Source of the DNA: Desulfomonile tiedjei DSM 6799
Lineage (GTDB): Bacteria > Desulfobacterota > Desulfomonilia > Desulfomonilales > Desulfomonilaceae
DNA length: 64,000 nt
Reading direction: 5' to 3'
Assembly (NCBI RefSeq): GCF_000266945.1
Contig: NC_018025.1
Location: 310,001 to 374,000, forward strand
Numbering within the stretch: the stretch's first letter is position 1; each line of letters starts with the position of its first letter. Position numbers and translations under genes: made by a program. This document shows positions 8,131 through 15,015 of this stretch, piece after piece. The notes under the pieces are model-generated. The model did not search any database and was not told the origin of the DNA. It was given only the letters and a program-made list of their open reading frames with translations.

Positions 8131-8415
8131 TCATTCACACTCCAGGTCGCGATTCATCTTGGATCGCAACGACGTCCATTTGAGACTTTCGGCAAAATTC
8201 TTCCATTTATCCGGCCCAAAAGCTGCCACACTTCCAGCGGAGTCCCAGATTATCACAACGGTCCCGTTTAACCCGGTAGAAGCCGCAGCAGCCCGAAGTT
8301 TGGCCAATTCTTGTTCCCTGTGCTCCTGGGCACGCTTCCCGAACGATCGGTCCACTGGTACAAGGATAACGTTTTCCCCCTCGTGGGTAAGCTGCGCCAC
8401 TCTATATTTGGCCAT
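8131..8415 (-). CDS. small conserved-looking hypothetical protein
   Basis: A 94-residue soluble protein beginning 'MAKYRVAQLTHEGENVILVPVD' in part, with 'GLNGTVVIIWDSAG' and 'FAESLKWTSLRSKMNRDLECE' near the end. It has no signal peptide, membrane segment or motif with known function. A strong ribosome site (GGAGGG) sits seven bases before the ATG, supporting real translation. It is the last gene of the minus-strand selenoprotein cluster, 71 bp after the DsrE-like gene. Its stop is UGA, but only four codons follow before another stop and no family pattern continues, so this UGA is taken as a true stop. Function unknown. Confidence 0.7.
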   Translation of the reverse strand: MAKYRVAQLTHEGENVILVPVDRSFGKRAQEHREQELAKLRAAAASTGLNGTVVIIWDSAGSVAAFGPDKWKNFAESLKWTSLRSKMNRDLECE

Positions 8416-8486: not shown

Positions 8487-8843
8487 TCAAAAGGTGAAAA
8501 CTTTTGACTCAGCCGCCAAGCCGATCATTGTCTTGGCAGTATCCAGTTTCGCCGTCTCAATGAGATCTTTCTCGTCAATCTGACGAGTCTTGGCACAGGG
8601 GACTCAGACGTAAAACGGCACTTTTCCTTGCACCAGGAAATCCATGTAGGTGTTCATCTCATCGCCGGTCGGAGCTACTACGTTTTCTGCCATCCCTTTT
8701 TTGGCGAAAACCACTCCATCGTCTACAAGAAAGATGCTGACCTCATGACCCTCTTGCCTCGCTATATGAGCCAATTGCATACAGCGTGTCGCCCGAGTAG
8801 GGTCCTCTAGTCCTCGACTAAGAACGAAAAGGAATTTTGCCAC
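8487..8843 (-). CDS. DsrE-like selenoprotein, UxxC (in-frame UGA read as Sec)
   Basis: Read with UGA 8604-8606 as selenocysteine, this is a 118-residue DsrE/DsrF/TusD-type protein. The N-terminal half 'KFLFVLSRGLEDPTRATRCM' in part and 'GHEVSIFLVDDGVVFAKKG' are typical of the fold. After 'GKVPFYV' the frame meets UGA and continues 'VPCAKTRQIDEKDLIETAKL', ending 'KVFTF' with TGA at 8487-8489. Sec80 and Cys83 give a UxxC redox pair where related proteins have a Cys. Start: GTG at 8843 with AGGAGGT seven bases upstream (GTG at 8852 would overlap that site). If UGA were a stop, the product would lose its last third and its redox pair. Such proteins handle sulfur as persulfide or act as small redox carriers. 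Second unit of the cluster, downstream of the ArsM/AhpD frame. Confidence 0.82.
8571..8587 (-). promoter_or_regulatory. candidate SECIS element of the DsrE-like gene
   Basis: In the mRNA, CUCGUC pairs perfectly with GACGAG around the loop AGAUU. The loop starts 22 nt after the UGA at 8604-8606 and has G as its second base. Spacing, loop size and the G at loop position 2 agree with the bacterial SECIS pattern recognised by SelB. Found by eye, not by a covariance model. Confidence 0.7.
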
Positions 8844-8999
8844 TGATATCACCTCCTGAATAAGCTCGCTTCGTTAAGTAAGTGCCCTTTTCCACAACGT
8901 CCTCGTGTTCGATCGAACATCAGAAGTTCGTCTATTAGAGATCTGCTGAGAATGAGGCCGTCACCTCACATCCGCTCATCCAGAGCGGGCTGCACCAGC

Positions 9000-9329
9000 T
9001 CAGGGTGCGCAAGCGCTCGCGTCAGTCGTGGAACCATCAGCGGAATCGATACCTGCACTGCTTTTCGCTTCGGTCGACGAGCCTGAGCACGTGTCATGAA
9101 GAATCTGAATCTTGGTCGCTCCTACCGTCATCGCTACTGCGGCTGTCTCTTGAAGTTCCTCATCCGTTGCGCCGAGTTGCCTTGCGACTGCAAGGCAGTA
9201 GCGGGTTCACGGATCGCATCCCGCGGATAATGATGCCCCCAGTGCGATCAGGTGCTTGGTCTTGCGATCTAATGCGCCCTCACTATATGCAGCTTCGAAG
9301 AATTCTTGATACTTGTCGAGCGTTGCCAT
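9000..9329 (-). CDS. AhpD-like (carboxymuconolactone decarboxylase fold) selenoprotein, CxxU
   Basis: Read with UGA 9207-9209 as Sec, this is a 109-residue AhpD-type protein: 'FFEAAYSEGALDRKTKHLIAL' in part, 'SAGCDP', Sec, 'TRYCLAVARQLGATDEELQE', then 'AAVAMTVGATKIQ'. Cys38-Asp-Pro-Sec41 sits where relatives carry the CxxC redox pair. The tail is Ser/Thr-rich and ends with Cys-Ala-Pro; TGA at 9000-9002 ends it. ATG 9327-9329 has a near-ideal AGGAGGT eight bases upstream, so it can start on its own. However, the upstream methyltransferase frame runs into it without any stop, so a fused product is also made in principle. AhpD proteins reduce peroxidatic partners or act as disulfide reductases. 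Confidence 0.8.
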
Positions 9330-10109
9330 TGAGTCCGACCTCCTCTCAGAGATTGGCGTTTCAGGTTTCAGAGTCTTAAACAGGACTCCCCTTGTAATCG
9401 GGGAGCTATTGAACCCGGTCTCCGAGACTATCTCAGAGGAGACAAAACCAACTTGTTTCAGTATCTCCAGGAAATCCTTTCCTGATATAGCTCCGCCCAT
9501 TCATCCCGACCAATTATCGATCCGCGCTTTTACATCCTCGGATAGAGGCCCCGTGAGCACCTGATCAGCCACGACAAGATGCCCACCGGGCTTCAGCACT
9601 CTAAGTACCTCTTTAAGAGCCTTTGGTTTATCCGGAATGAGGTTAAAGGCCCCACTGGAGATAACGACGTCAAAGTCTGCGTCACGGAAAGGCAAGTCCT
9701 CTGCGGAGCACTCCTGAAAGGATACGTTTTTGAGATCGGTTCTGCTTAAGTTCTCCCATGCCCTCCCCAGCATTTCAGAGCTCAAATCTATGCCGACGAC
9801 CCTTCCTGTCGGTCCTGTCATTATGGCTGCCACCAATGCGTCTGTACCTCCGCCGCAGCCAATATCCAGAACGCTCTCTCCCGGAGTTATTGCTCCTGTT
9901 GAAAAAGGGTTTCCTACGCCGCAGAACGAGTCCAAGACGGCCTCGGGCAAGGATCCGAGAATGTCCGGGTCATATTTCAGAGCAGCAAGTCCTTCACGAC
10001 CTGTAGGGTAACTGAAAAGGCCGTCGGGATTGACGGCAACTTTGGAATATTTTTCGCGAACACCCTCTTCGATCTTCTTTCTATCCTCGGCAGTGAAGCC
10101 ATATTTCAT
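9000..10109 (-). CDS. ArsM-like SAM methyltransferase selenoprotein, in frame with AhpD-like domain
   Basis: Residues 1-250 are an arsenite-methyltransferase-type domain: 'FCGVGNP', SAM motif 'VLDIGCGGGTDALVAA', acidic 'VVGIDLSSEML', 'CSAEDLPF' and 'LRVLKPGGHLVVAD'. After 'ARIDNWSG' comes UGA (9501-9503, codon 203), then 'MGGAISGKDFLEILKQVGF' and 'ITRGVLFKTLKP'. In ArsM/AS3MT the matching position (Trp-Gly-x-Cys-x-Gly-Gly-Ala) is the catalytic arsenic-binding Cys, so Sec203 would replace it. The frame has no stop before the AhpD-like part. With both UGAs decoded, the product is 369 residues with Sec203 and Sec301. If UGA is a stop, the enzyme ends at 9501. Likely role: methylation of As(III) or a similar metalloid. 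Divergent from the LysR gene. Confidence 0.8.
9178..9197 (-). promoter_or_regulatory. candidate SECIS element of the AhpD-like gene
   Basis: In the mRNA, UGCCUUGC pairs over eight perfect base pairs with GCAAGGCA around the loop AGUC. The loop begins 17 nt after the UGA at 9207-9209 and its second base is G. The stem coincides with codons for 'YCLAVARQ', so it is inside the coding region, as bacterial SECIS elements are. Confidence 0.72.
9468..9484 (-). promoter_or_regulatory. candidate SECIS element of the ArsM-like gene
   Basis: In the mRNA, CAGGAA pairs perfectly with UUCCUG around the loop AGGAU, and a flanking U-G pair extends the stem. The loop starts 22 nt after UGA 9501-9503, the same spacing as in the DsrE-like gene, and again has G at its second position. 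Codons here specify 'SGKDFLE', normal for the family, so the hairpin is superimposed on coding sequence. Confidence 0.7.
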
Positions 10110-10585: not shown

Positions 10586-11488
10586 TTGAATCTTTCTCAA
10601 CTGGAAACTTTCGTAACTGTGGCTCGAACTGAAAGTTTCACCAAAGCCGCTTTGTTGATCTGTCGAACTCAATCGGCAGTGTCCAGACAAATGCAGGATC
10701 TGGAAAAGTCTCTCGGGGTGCCACTCTTCGAGAGAATCGGTCGAAAAGTGTCTTTGACCGCGGCTGGCAGAATTCTTCTCGAACAAGCCCCTCGTCTTCT
10801 TCAGCAGGCCCAAGACCTTACGGAACGACTTCGAGACTTTAACCAGGGTGTCGGAGGGGAACTTCGCGTAGGGGGTACTATTTCTGCGGCCAGTACTTTC
10901 CTTCCACGGATATTGGCCAAGTATAAACGCTCCTATCCTTCGGTAAGTCTGAGCCTCCAACCGGGGCACACGCAAATGTTGATTCAGAAACTGCGGAGCA
11001 ATGATCTGGACGTTGCTGTTCTCGGATGCGAGTCGATGGAATCAGATATGAAGACAAGCTCCCTGATCTCCGATGCGATAGTGCTCGTGGCAGCGTCTGA
11101 CCATCCGTTGGCAGCCAAGAGGTCTGTCACACCGAATGAACTGAATGGAATGGAATTCATGTTCCGCGAATCCGGTTCAGATTCCCGTAACTTAACAAAG
11201 CAGTGGTTGGTGGACAACAAAGTGGACGTGAAAACCCTGATGGATCTATGGTGACCGGATATCATAAAGCGCCTGGTAGGCGCTGGATTGGCCTTGGCCG
11301 CATTATCCGAAGCATCCGTTGCAGAGGACCTGAGGCAGAAATCGCTATCCATTATACGCGTTCATGGTTGGCCTTTAGCAAGGACAATGGCGGTGGTGCA
11401 CCACATTCAAAAATACGTGGCTCGTCCACTTCAGGGTTTCTTGGATGAGGTAGGTTTTCAGAGCCACTCTGTGTTAACGCCGGTTTAG
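10586..11488 (+). CDS. LysR-family regulator with in-frame UGA (candidate selenoprotein)
   Basis: A 300-codon frame of normal LysR length, interrupted once by UGA at 11252-11254 (codon 223). Residues 1-60 are the winged HTH ('TESFTKAALLICRTQSAVSR' in part, 'LEKSLGVPLFERIGR'). Residues 90-300 are the effector domain ('GELRVGGTISAASTFLPRIL', 'VAVLGCES'). Around the UGA the text reads 'KTLMDLW', Sec, 'PDIIKRLVGAGLALAALSE', matching the usual 'MELGSxEAIKRAVxAGLGIALLS', where a Ser/Thr/Asn at the helix start contacts ligand. The frame then runs undamaged to TAG at 11486. A perfect SECIS-like hairpin follows the UGA. Start: TTG 10586 with GGAGG upstream. Divergent from the seleno-methyltransferase operon, so probably its redox- or metalloid-responsive regulator. 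Alternative: a simple nonsense mutation. Confidence 0.75.
11268..11284 (+). promoter_or_regulatory. candidate SECIS element of the LysR-family gene
   Basis: AGCGCC pairs perfectly with GGCGCU around the loop UGGUA. The loop begins 19 nt after UGA 11252-11254 and has G as its second and third bases, including a GGU as in classical bacterial SECIS loops. A perfect six-pair stem in the right window is unlikely by chance in a decayed gene. Confidence 0.6.
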
Positions 11489-12327: not shown

Positions 12328-12745
12328 AAAAACCTCCAGGAGGCTAAATTGTACCAATATCAGACTTCCGGATAATAAGTCAGCGGACGACCAAAATCAA
12401 TGTAGAGATATATCCCTCGTTTGGACATCAAATCTCAGAGAGTTGGACTTAAGAGCGGCAGTCCATTTGGTCATGTTGGGAACAAAGCCTTGCGAAATTT
12501 TTTCGATCCAAGCGCAGCAATTCACAATGGCCCTATAAATCGGTAACCAGCACTACTTTATCGCTTTACCCTCATCGTGAACAAAAAATAATCAATATAG
12601 TGCCTTATTTCATTGACTTGCTGACGCTTTTCGCGTACAAGCATAATAACTATAGTCAGAACAAACGTAATGTTGTTTCGTAGAACGTAGTATTTCTGCT
12701 CGGCTGCCAGCTCATTGTAGTATGTAGTTGAATGAGGAGAATAGT
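12328..12745. other. intergenic region, divergent promoters expected, no gene seen
   Basis: About 420 bp between the minus-strand small gene and the plus-strand barrel-like gene. AT-rich toward 12570-12700. No open frame with ribosome site or recognised product, no repeat copy. It should hold two divergent promoters. Confidence 0.5.
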
Positions 12746-13702
12746 ATGGATTTTAGGACTCGTTCAAAGCAGTTTGTCTGTTTGATGGCCATCCTGTTCG
12801 TTTGTGCTTTTTCCGCTTCTGCACATGCTCAAGGCTTGTTTGGTGCGGGTCTCCCCGGGCTTCCCTCCTTTGGATTTCCCGGAGGGATCGGAGGGTGCGG
12901 TGAGAGAGCATGCCCTGCAGGTGGATTGGTCGGGTACATAGGATGGATGGAGAATCGAGAAGGCACCGAGATTAGTGGGGATACGACGGAGACTACGATC
13001 TTCGCAGCTTTTTCCGCCAAGCACAAGTACCCTGAACGCGGTCTTTGGTTAGGCCTCATCGGGTCGGGCTGCCTGTCAGAACAAGTTTCTCTCCTGGCCT
13101 CAGGCTGGTATCTGGTTCCTTCCAGACAGAATGAAGTTGAGATTTATGATTGGGGCTCTTCCAGACGCAATTGGGACACGGACCTTCAATGGTGGTACGT
13201 GGACGGTCTTTTCGCATTCGGTAAACAGTTATCTCTCCTTGCCGGTTTACGGTTCGACCGTTACTCAAACAAATTCAAGAATCCGTCAAATGCCATTGCG
13301 GTGGTATCAAATCCCAATGACACTGCCGACGTGAACTCCGACGGCTGGATACCGCTTGTCGGCACACAATATGTCTATGCCGATACCACTACAAATCTTA
13401 CGGTGCGAGCTGTAGGGTTCCCTGTGCTTCTGGGTAACTTCAAGTACAGAGAAGCGGTTGGAGGAGCAAACGCACTGGAGGGCAGCGGGAATTGGAGGGG
13501 TGGCTACTTCCTGGAGATATTCGGCGAATATTCAAAGAGACTGGGTCCAGGCACAATTGGCGTATTTGGCCGCTGGAATGGTACCGAAGGGAAAACTCAT
13601 GTCGATATCCAGGCATTACCACTTGCAGGCAGCAGCGACTTTGACATCAGTTTTCGGAGGATAACGTGGACAGTGGGTGGGAGTGTAGGTTTGAGTTTTT
13701 AA
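12746..13702 (+). CDS. exported beta-barrel-like protein, paralogue 1
   Basis: A 318-residue exported protein: signal peptide 1-29 ('LMAILFVCAFSASAHAQG'), a Gly/Pro/Phe-rich start with two close Cys ('GGCGERACPAGG'), then strand-like stretches: 'LVGYIGWMENREG', 'YPERGLWLGLIGSG', 'WYVDGLFAFGKQLSLLAGLRFD', 'IGVFGRWNGTEGK', and a terminal Phe ('GGSVGLSF'), as in small outer-membrane barrels. ATG 12746 has GGAG at good spacing; an upstream TTG in frame would start inside that site. It is paralogous along its whole length to the next gene. Family not recognised; probably outer-membrane, function unknown. Confidence 0.72.
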   Translation: MDFRTRSKQFVCLMAILFVCAFSASAHAQGLFGAGLPGLPSFGFPGGIGGCGERACPAGGLVGYIGWMENREGTEISGDTTETTIFAAFSAKHKYPERGLWLGLIGSGCLSEQVSLLASGWYLVPSRQNEVEIYDWGSSRRNWDTDLQWWYVDGLFAFGKQLSLLAGLRFDRYSNKFKNPSNAIAVVSNPNDTADVNSDGWIPLVGTQYVYADTTTNLTVRAVGFPVLLGNFKYREAVGGANALEGSGNWRGGYFLEIFGEYSKRLGPGTIGVFGRWNGTEGKTHVDIQALPLAGSSDFDISFRRITWTVGGSVGLSF

Positions 13703-13804: not shown

Positions 13805-14046
13805 CGCCGCATACTCGCCTTAGGCTCTCCCGGGCAACGACCAAAAGGCGCATTTCTCCTTTTGTGTCAATTTTTAGTTTCAAGTCACACGGTAACCACT
13901 CAATCCTCCATGATTTTTCTGTTAATAATCATTGACGATTTAAGTTAGTTCTGATATAATCTGCATAGTGCATTGAAAGCTATCACGTTTATCCGGAAAC
14001 ACTCTTTGGGGTGGCCTCCGCCTTGTGATTGCTCTGGAGGGGAACT

Positions 14047-15015
14047 ATGGATTCTTTATTCGGTCGGTCACGGTTTTTCGTGTGGGTTTTACCCATAGTG
14101 TTTTGCATGCTGTCTGCCTCAATCGTTTTCGGTCAAACATTCGGGCCGCCGCTATTCGGTATGCAGCCGTTTTCAGCAAACCGGGGCTGCCCGCCTCCTT
14201 CGTGCGGTGACGTAAAAGAGCCTTCACTTGCTGGGAACTTTTACGTTGGTTGGATGGAGGATCGGCGGGAGACTTCCGTTTACCTTGACGGGACCGGTGG
14301 AACCCTTCTCGGTGCAAGAAACGCCGAACATCTCTATCCCGAACGAGGATTATGGCTGGGTGTCTCCGGATCGTTTGGGCTCAATGAACGCGTATCGGTC
14401 CTGGGGTCGGGATGGTATCTTTTTCCTTCAGATAATACCGGATCCGAAACCTACAACGAAGGGGGAGCACGTAGGGCCTGGAAAAATCAGAGGCAATGGT
14501 GGTTTGTTGACGGATTTCTGGCCTACAGCCCACAAACTACTTTTTCCCTTCTGGCAGGCGGGCGTTTCGATTACTACACCACAAAATTCAAAGATGCATC
14601 AGAACCTGCCGGTGTGGCCAGCTCCCCGGATGACACTGCGGACGTTATTTCCCAGGGATGGATTCCTCTGGTGGGCGGACAATATGCATATACCGGGCCG
14701 GGAAACAATCTGGTTATAAGAGCCGTAGGATTTCCCTTGCTCCTGGGAAATGTCAAGTACAATGAGACGTTCAATGGAGCTACTCATTTAGAAGGGCGAG
14801 GCAATTGGTCGAGAGGCTATTTCTTTGAACTGTTCAGTCAATATGCTTTCAGTGCGGGACCGGGTTTTGTTGGAGTGTTCGGTCGATGGAACGCTACCCA
14901 GGGGAAAGCTCAGGCGGAAATCGATGCACAACCTGCTGCGGGCAGCCAAGACTGGGAAGTTGTGCTCACAAGATCCTCATGGACTCTGGGAGGCACTGTA
15001 GGCGTATCTTTCTGA
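14047..15015 (+). CDS. exported beta-barrel-like protein, paralogue 2
   Basis: A 322-residue exported protein, signal peptide to about residue 30 ('VWVLPIVFCMLSASIVFGQ'). It shares with the preceding gene the two-Cys start ('GCPPPSCGD'), 'FYVGWMEDRRE', 'YPERGLWLGVSGSFG', 'QRQWWFVDGF', 'DDTADVISQGWIPLVGGQYAY', 'IRAVGFPLLLGNVKYNE', 'VGVFGRWNATQGKAQ' and the C-terminal 'WTLGGTVGVSF'. ATG 14047 is preceded by GGAGGGG; an upstream TTG is less likely. A tandem duplication that has diverged clearly. Probably an outer-membrane barrel of unknown function. Confidence 0.72.
   Translation: MDSLFGRSRFFVWVLPIVFCMLSASIVFGQTFGPPLFGMQPFSANRGCPPPSCGDVKEPSLAGNFYVGWMEDRRETSVYLDGTGGTLLGARNAEHLYPERGLWLGVSGSFGLNERVSVLGSGWYLFPSDNTGSETYNEGGARRAWKNQRQWWFVDGFLAYSPQTTFSLLAGGRFDYYTTKFKDASEPAGVASSPDDTADVISQGWIPLVGGQYAYTGPGNNLVIRAVGFPLLLGNVKYNETFNGATHLEGRGNWSRGYFFELFSQYAFSAGPGFVGVFGRWNATQGKAQAEIDAQPAAGSQDWEVVLTRSSWTLGGTVGVSF

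What the first reader, a model, noticed from the sequence alone, without database searches (positions are those of the whole stretch)
9330..10109. ArsM-like methyltransferase with selenocysteine at the catalytic Cys position
The frame reads 'NWSG'-UGA-'MGGAI', aligning with the Trp-Gly-x-Cys-x-Gly-Gly-Ala region that holds the catalytic arsenic-binding Cys of AS3MT/ArsM. Sec there could alter reactivity toward As(III), Sb(III) or Se/Te species. The SECIS-like hairpin CAGGAA-AGGAU-UUCCUG follows.
Basis: partly seen in the sequence, partly recalled or inferred. Interest (0 to 1): 0.85.

Follow-up and report, generated by a model that had tools for sequence, protein, structure and literature searches.

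The report
Triple-selenium methyltransferase and its selenium-containing regulator
The reported gene is a real enzyme built with three selenocysteines, and its family is already catalogued; the surprise is next door, where the divergent LysR-type gene switch also appears to carry a selenocysteine, which I could not find described for any transcription factor.

Summary
In detail: on the minus strand the frame reads NWSG-UGA-MGGAI, and the UGA falls on the catalytic Cys174 column of ArsM. The gene is longer than reported: 377 codons (10109-8976) with three in-frame UGAs (U203, U301, U370), fusing an ArsM-like methyltransferase to an AhpD-like domain. It matches NCBIfam NF041537 (ArsM_AhpD_UU) end to end at 635 bits and is listed in a 2026 selenoprotein catalogue, so this part is already known. 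Only one of ArsM's Cys columns is kept exactly, so arsenite as substrate is not shown.

The unexpected result is the divergent LysR-type regulator (10586-11488 +), which has an in-frame UGA at codon 223. Two orthologues (75-76% identical) carry UGA at the same codon. Codons after it are under purifying selection (dN/dS 0.13-0.16), a downstream hairpin shows a compensatory change, and the residue lies where other LysR proteins have Ser, His, Asn or Thr at the putative effector pocket. Neither the 2022 and 2026 catalogues nor the best-scoring NCBIfam LysR models shown describe a Sec-containing LysR. A DsrE-like gene downstream also carries an in-frame UGA. The genome (probably Desulfomonile tiedjei) has tRNA-Sec and SelB.

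The parts
8976..10109 (-). ArsM-like methyltransferase / AhpD fusion selenoprotein, 377 codons, Sec at 203, 301 and 370, terminal stop TGA 8976-8978
   Evidence: Frame read with TGA=U; NF041537 635 bits over 1-345/345; seven-sequence alignment
9501..9503 (-). UGA for Sec203, the ArsM Cys174 column
9467..9485 (-). SECIS-like hairpin of Sec203, 8 bp, loop GGA
9207..9209 (-). UGA for Sec301 in the AhpD CxxU motif (GCDPU)
   Evidence: Cys at this column in L048
9178..9197 (-). SECIS-like hairpin of Sec301, 8 bp, loop AGTC
9000..9002 (-). UGA for Sec370 in the C-terminal CAPU motif
   Evidence: UGA at the equivalent position in L017, L018, L046, L047, L049; in L046 and L050 the frame closes soon after with a TAA or TAG stop
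8972..8988 (-). SECIS-like hairpin of Sec370 (CCGCTC-TGGAT-GAGCGG), which spans the terminal stop
   Evidence: identical hairpin in L017, longer one in L047
10586..11488 (+). Divergent LysR-type regulator, 300 aa when the in-frame UGA is read as Sec223
   Evidence: complete LysR_substrate domain only with read-through; pLDDT 90.7
11252..11254 (+). UGA for Sec223 of the LysR-type regulator (LMDLW-U-PDIIK)
   Evidence: same codon in two orthologues at 75-76% identity
11268..11284 (+). SECIS-like hairpin of Sec223 (AGCGCCT-GGT-AGGCGCT)
   Evidence: compensatory change in L112
10524..10544 (+). Conserved promoter/operator-like block TGTCAAACGAATTATNATCAT upstream of lysR
   Evidence: conserved in three genomes; single copy in own genome
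8487..8843 (-). DsrE-family protein with in-frame UGA at 8604-8606 (VPFYV-U-VPCAKTR), hairpin 8587-8571
   Evidence: UGA at the same column in L046

Best explanation
The locus is a selenoprotein neighbourhood. The reported gene makes a three-Sec fusion enzyme. An ArsM-type SAM methyltransferase uses Sec203, in place of ArsM Cys174, to bind a soft metal(loid) substrate and present it for methylation, probably with Cys63 as second ligand. The AhpD-like domain (CxxU) and the C-terminal CxxU tail act as a built-in selenol reductant that resolves oxidised intermediates and resets Sec203. The UGAs are decoded by SelB and tRNA-Sec through hairpins 9-15 nt downstream. The divergent LysR-type protein is itself a selenoprotein: Sec223 sits at the start of the helix lining the effector pocket and probably senses a metalloid, an oxyanion or redox state by direct selenol chemistry, regulating this neighbourhood. 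Shown here: frames, UGA conservation, family membership of the fusion, purifying selection and folds. Inferred: substrate, redox relay, effector, and target genes. Separate confidences: fusion is a selenoprotein of NF041537 0.95; LysR is a selenoprotein 0.8; methylation of a soft metal(loid) 0.75, of arsenite in particular 0.4; built-in redox relay 0.5.
For: Fusion: full-length NF041537 match, 635 bits against a cut-off of 510; UGA at the Sec203 column in 21 of 21 relatives, Cys in canonical ArsM; ArsM structures are the top fold matches; hairpin covariation 0.155, no shuffle of 500 as high; L048 has Cys at the Sec301 column; MT and AhpD stay in one frame with linkers of different length in seven loci. 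Machinery: tRNA-Sec and SelB in the genome. LysR: UGA at codon 223 in three genomes; dN/dS after the UGA 0.13-0.16 with dS at least 1.0; compensatory CGC/GGC to CAC/GGT change in the hairpin stem; complete regulatory domain only with read-through; mean pLDDT 88 or more in every ten-residue block from 211 to 290; best regulatory-domain fold matches include the sulfite sensor YeiE, Z 24.9; all three LysR(U) genomes lie among the four of 18 family genomes with NF041537-type genes (P 0.005, ignoring relatedness).
Against: No protein or activity data. ArsM Cys columns other than 174 are not kept, so the substrate may not be arsenite. The LysR UGA column is Ser, His, Asn or Thr, never Cys, in 22 other LysR proteins, so the usual Cys/Sec pairing is absent. 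Single hairpins are matched by 2-8% of synonymous shuffles. In L113 the best-scoring LysR hairpin is a different, shifted one. LysR(U) was found only in three genomes of one family. In G401 the regulator stands 6.4 kb from the fusion gene, divergent from another UGA-containing gene.
Confidence: 0.7

Rival explanations
1. Everything that is real here is the already described selenoprotein ArsM-AhpD; the LysR UGA is a nonsense mutation or gives a functional 222-residue truncated regulator.
For: No Cys-containing LysR homologue at the UGA column; hairpin alone is not decisive; narrow distribution.
Against: Same UGA in three genomes whose synonymous sites are saturated or nearly so, with dN/dS 0.13-0.16 downstream; downstream residues 224-289 keep LysR homology and complete the domain; compensatory stem change.
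Confidence: 0.15
2. The fusion does not methylate arsenite but another soft substrate, such as mercury, antimony, tellurium, selenium or an organometallic methyl-transfer intermediate, with Sec203 and Cys63 as two ligands.
For: ArsM Cys positions other than Cys174 are replaced or shifted while Sec203 and Cys63 are invariant; in G401 the gene lies near MtaA-like methyltransferase and corrinoid protein genes.
Against: Closest sequence and fold matches are arsenite methyltransferases; own-genome neighbours give no substrate hint.
Confidence: 0.45
3. AhpD is a separately translated protein started at ATG 9329 behind its own ribosome-binding site, not part of a fusion.
For: GAGAGGAGGT lies 8 nt before ATG 9329 in the window.
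Against: No stop separates the domains in seven loci, linker length varies but frame is kept, and NF041537 is defined as a fusion. An internal start could still make both products.
Confidence: 0.15

Closest known systems
NCBIfam NF041537 ArsM_AhpD_UU (arsenite methyltransferase/AhpD domain selenoprotein; attributed to Haft and Tolstoy 2025 in PMC13188914)
   Same: Full-length match, same domain order, UxxG and CxxU motifs; the catalogue gives three Sec residues
   Different: Nothing that sets it apart; this is a member
Sec-containing arsenite methyltransferase (NF008823; listed in PMC13188914 with reference to Fomenko et al. 2007)
   Same: Sec at the same catalytic Cys column; L081 is such a case
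   Different: No AhpD domain; keeps the other ArsM Cys residues; window scores 194 bits against a cut-off of 263
NF041536 ArsM/DUF2284 and NF047649 methyltransferase/UXPK-star selenoproteins
   Same: Same UGA-bearing methyltransferase domain (368 and 317 bits)
   Different: Other C-terminal partners; below their cut-offs here
LysR_Se / HrsM, selenium metabolism-associated LysR regulator (NF040786)
   Same: LysR-type regulator tied to selenium use; best NCBIfam match of the divergent regulator, 183 bits, level with YeiE
   Different: Below the 250-bit cut-off; described as a regulator of Se genes, not listed as a selenoprotein
YeiE, sulfite-sensing LysR-type regulator (PDB 7erp, 7erq)
   Same: Best regulatory-domain fold match, Z 24.9, rmsd 1.8 over 200 residues
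   Different: No Sec; in the related full-length chain 8sbf the residue aligned to Sec223 is His (LTLGHNEAI)

Membership tests
NF041537 ArsM_AhpD_UU | Full-length profile match above the curated cut-off | tested here: met
   635.1 bits against 510, profile 1-345/345
NF041537 ArsM_AhpD_UU | Two in-frame UGAs at UxxG and CxxU motifs | tested here: met
   U203 MGG and GCDPU301
NF041537 ArsM_AhpD_UU | Third Sec, as given in the catalogue (taken here to be the one near the C-terminus) | tested here: met
   U370 in CAPU; UGA in relatives L017, L018, L046, L047, L049
ArsM / arsenite methyltransferase | Cys at the position of CmArsM Cys174 | tested here: met
   Sec replaces it; alignment with 5evj and 5eg5
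ArsM / arsenite methyltransferase | Cys at the position of CmArsM Cys72 | tested here: not met
   Val65 in 21 of 21 relatives; Cys63 two residues earlier instead
ArsM / arsenite methyltransferase | N-terminal Cys pair of canonical ArsM | tested here: not met
   Columns 109 and 110 are gaps in all Sec-clade members
ArsM / arsenite methyltransferase | As(III) methylation activity | not testable with these tools
   Needs an enzyme assay
Bacterial selenoprotein | Sec machinery in the genome | tested here: met
   tRNA-Sec UCA 69.5 bits, SelB 404.5 bits; SelA and SelD were not searched
Bacterial selenoprotein | Hairpin shortly after the UGA | tested here: met
   All three UGAs; covariation for the first
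Bacterial selenoprotein | Selenium in the protein | not testable with these tools
   Needs 75Se labelling or mass spectrometry
LysR-type transcriptional regulator (divergent gene) | HTH_1 plus complete LysR_substrate domain | tested here: met
   PF00126 1-60/60; PF03466 2-204/209 with read-through, 2-132 without
NF040786 LysR_Sec_metab (divergent gene) | Score above curated cut-off | tested here: not met
   183 bits against 250

The most novel reading that the evidence does not exclude
The LysR-type regulator at 10586-11488 is a selenoprotein, the first Sec-containing DNA-binding transcription factor I could find any trace of, in which Sec replaces a Ser, His, Asn or Thr of the effector pocket rather than a Cys and serves as the chemical sensor for a selenoprotein gene neighbourhood. 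Cys/Sec-pair searches would miss it because no Cys homologue was seen.
Probability: 0.75. Interest if true: 0.78.

Novelty: new variant of a known kind. Interest (0 to 1): 0.6.

Why it matters
The methyltransferase itself adds one member to a catalogued family. If the regulator is a selenoprotein, Sec is used in gene regulation and not only in catalysis: a LysR protein could read out metalloid, oxyanion or redox state through a selenol in its effector pocket, and its own full-length synthesis would depend on selenium supply. It also shows that Sec can enter a family without a Cys ancestor at the site, a class that standard selenoprotein searches skip. D. tiedjei is a cultured species, so if the genome assignment is right, both claims can be tested directly.

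Tried and rejected
Plus-strand reading of 9330-10109: no gene. Chance hairpin as sole evidence: rejected as too weak after the synonymous-codon control; conservation and covariation are used instead. Separate AhpD gene: disfavoured. DsrE gene as a conserved partner of the fusion: seen near the fusion only in L046 among the loci tested, so no general link is claimed. Operator as a regulon marker: the conserved block occurs once in the genome at up to 3 mismatches, so no other targets were found. Wider search for LysR(U): none beyond the three genomes in 395 genomes of the phylum or 42 of the class. Papers: the primary source for NF041537 (PMC12013261) is not held, so its text could not be checked for the regulator; no held paper uses phrases such as selenocysteine-containing transcription or Sec-containing regulator.

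Full report
Observation. The 9330 end is not a gene end. Read with TGA as Sec, the frame continues through an AhpD-like domain, GCDPU, and a tail ending ACAPU-AGAARSG-stop: 377 codons with Sec at 203, 301 and 370. Homologues show the terminal stop is at RSG* and that the third UGA is read: the UGA recurs in L017, L018, L046, L047 and L049, and in L046 and L050 the frame closes soon after it with TAA or TAG.

Where it is. The window lies at bases 310001-374000 of a 6.53-Mb, two-contig genome. The genome has a tRNA-Sec with UCA anticodon and SelB.

Is the UGA on the catalytic Cys? Yes. In the alignment to solved ArsM proteins it pairs with the Cys of GECLAGAL (5evj) and GECLGGAL (5eg5, C. merolae ArsM Cys174). 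In 25 distinct canonical ArsM genes from the phylum the codon is TGT or TGC, and in one canonical ArsM (L081) it is TGA; in all 21 close relatives including the window it is TGA (the L020 and L069 loci are the same gene and are counted once).

Is it an arsenite methyltransferase? The top fold matches are ArsM and AS3MT, but the Sec clade keeps only the Cys174 column. Cys72 is Val in all 21, with an invariant Cys two residues before, and the N-terminal Cys pair is missing. It works like an ArsM at the level of fold and one catalytic ligand; its substrate is not shown.

Hairpin. On 21 sequences the stem pairs in 98.8% of cells, with five cells changed on both sides and a covariation score of 0.155 reached by none of 500 shuffles; sliding the partner by one base drops pairing to 61-75%. 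The relatives are not independent, so this is supporting rather than final.

Known family. NF041537 matches at 635 bits over its whole length. A 2026 catalogue lists this family with UxxG and CxxU motifs and three Sec residues, attributing it to Haft and Tolstoy 2025, and lists Sec-containing arsenite methyltransferase with reference to Fomenko et al. 2007 (PMC13188914). The given finding is thus a member of a known family.

The divergent regulator. The gene upstream on the plus strand (10586-11488) is a LysR-type regulator. Under the standard code it stops at codon 223 with a truncated regulatory domain; reading the UGA through gives LMDLW-U-PDIIKRLVGAGLALAALS..., a full 300-residue LysR protein. 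In the same family, G401 and G403 have orthologues at 76% and 75% identity, each with one TGA, at exactly codon 223. The 62 codons after the UGA evolve with dN/dS 0.13-0.16 while dS is 1.0-1.4, so they are translated. A 7-bp hairpin starts 13 nt after the UGA in the window and in L112; the stem change CGC to CAC is matched by GGC to GGT on the other arm. In L113 the inner part of this stem is kept but another pairing scores better.

Where Sec223 sits. In 22 other LysR proteins the column is Ser (15), His (3), Asn (3) or Thr (1), never Cys. In the model (pLDDT 90.7) residue 223 lies between strand 216-221 and helix 224-232. That this spot contributes to the effector pocket in LysR proteins is established knowledge from memory. 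The best regulatory-domain match is YeiE, a sulfite sensor, at Z 24.9; sulfite or selenite-like oxyanions and metalloids are therefore reasonable effector candidates, but this is inference.

Link between regulator and enzyme. LysR(U) is in 3 of 18 family genomes and ArsM-AhpD type genes in 4, with all three LysR(U) genomes inside the four. In G403 the regulator is divergent from the fusion gene, as in the window. In G401 it is divergent from a TsoX-domain/thioredoxin-reductase gene with an in-frame UGA (GDPNUKPC), and the fusion is 6.4 kb away after MtaA-like and corrinoid protein genes. A block TGTCAAACGAATTATNATCAT upstream of lysR is conserved in all three.

Novelty of the regulator. The 2026 catalogue has no LysR protein or transcription factor; its one regulatory entry is a putative FmdB-family protein. 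The 2022 catalogue mentions LysR_Se only as a regulator of selenium genes, and its source paper likewise. The best 25 of 55 NCBIfam hits include no Sec-containing LysR model. The primary paper on selenoprotein neighbourhoods could not be read, so prior notice of this regulator cannot be excluded.

Scoring. The reported gene alone would be 'already known' with an interest near 0.3. The grade 'new variant of a known kind' and the higher interest rest on the neighbouring regulator.

Verdict. The given finding is correct in its key claim and belongs to a known family. The neighbourhood adds a candidate new selenoprotein type, a Sec-containing LysR regulator, supported by conservation but not by protein data.

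Noticed in passing
10586-11488 (+): Divergent LysR-type regulator with an in-frame UGA conserved in three genomes; treated in the main report as a candidate new selenoprotein.
   Followed up: yes
8487-8843 (-): DsrE-family gene with in-frame UGA (VPFYVUVPCAKTR) and hairpin; UGA at the same column in L046. DsrE-like UxxC selenoproteins are already catalogued.
   Followed up: partly
Own genome C1:3562734-3564838 (L002, L010): A second SelB-like gene (291 bits, over the cut-off) directly behind a 92-nt tRNA that scores as tRNA-Sec (51.9 bits) but has a GCA (Cys) anticodon; possible Sec insertion at Cys codons, as reported for some other bacteria.
   Followed up: partly
L122:6651-7898 (+): TsoX-domain plus thioredoxin reductase fusion with in-frame UGA (GDPNUKPC), divergent from the LysR(U) gene in G401.
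   Followed up: partly
8131-8415 (-): 94-residue protein downstream of the DsrE gene with no Pfam or NCBIfam match.
   Followed up: no
L081: A canonical ArsM gene in G072 with UGA at the catalytic Cys codon (YTGUVSGA) and a hairpin after it.
   Followed up: no
12728-13702 and 14029-15015 (+): Two adjacent, similar genes for apparently exported proteins (324 and 328 aa), looking like a tandem duplication.
   Followed up: no
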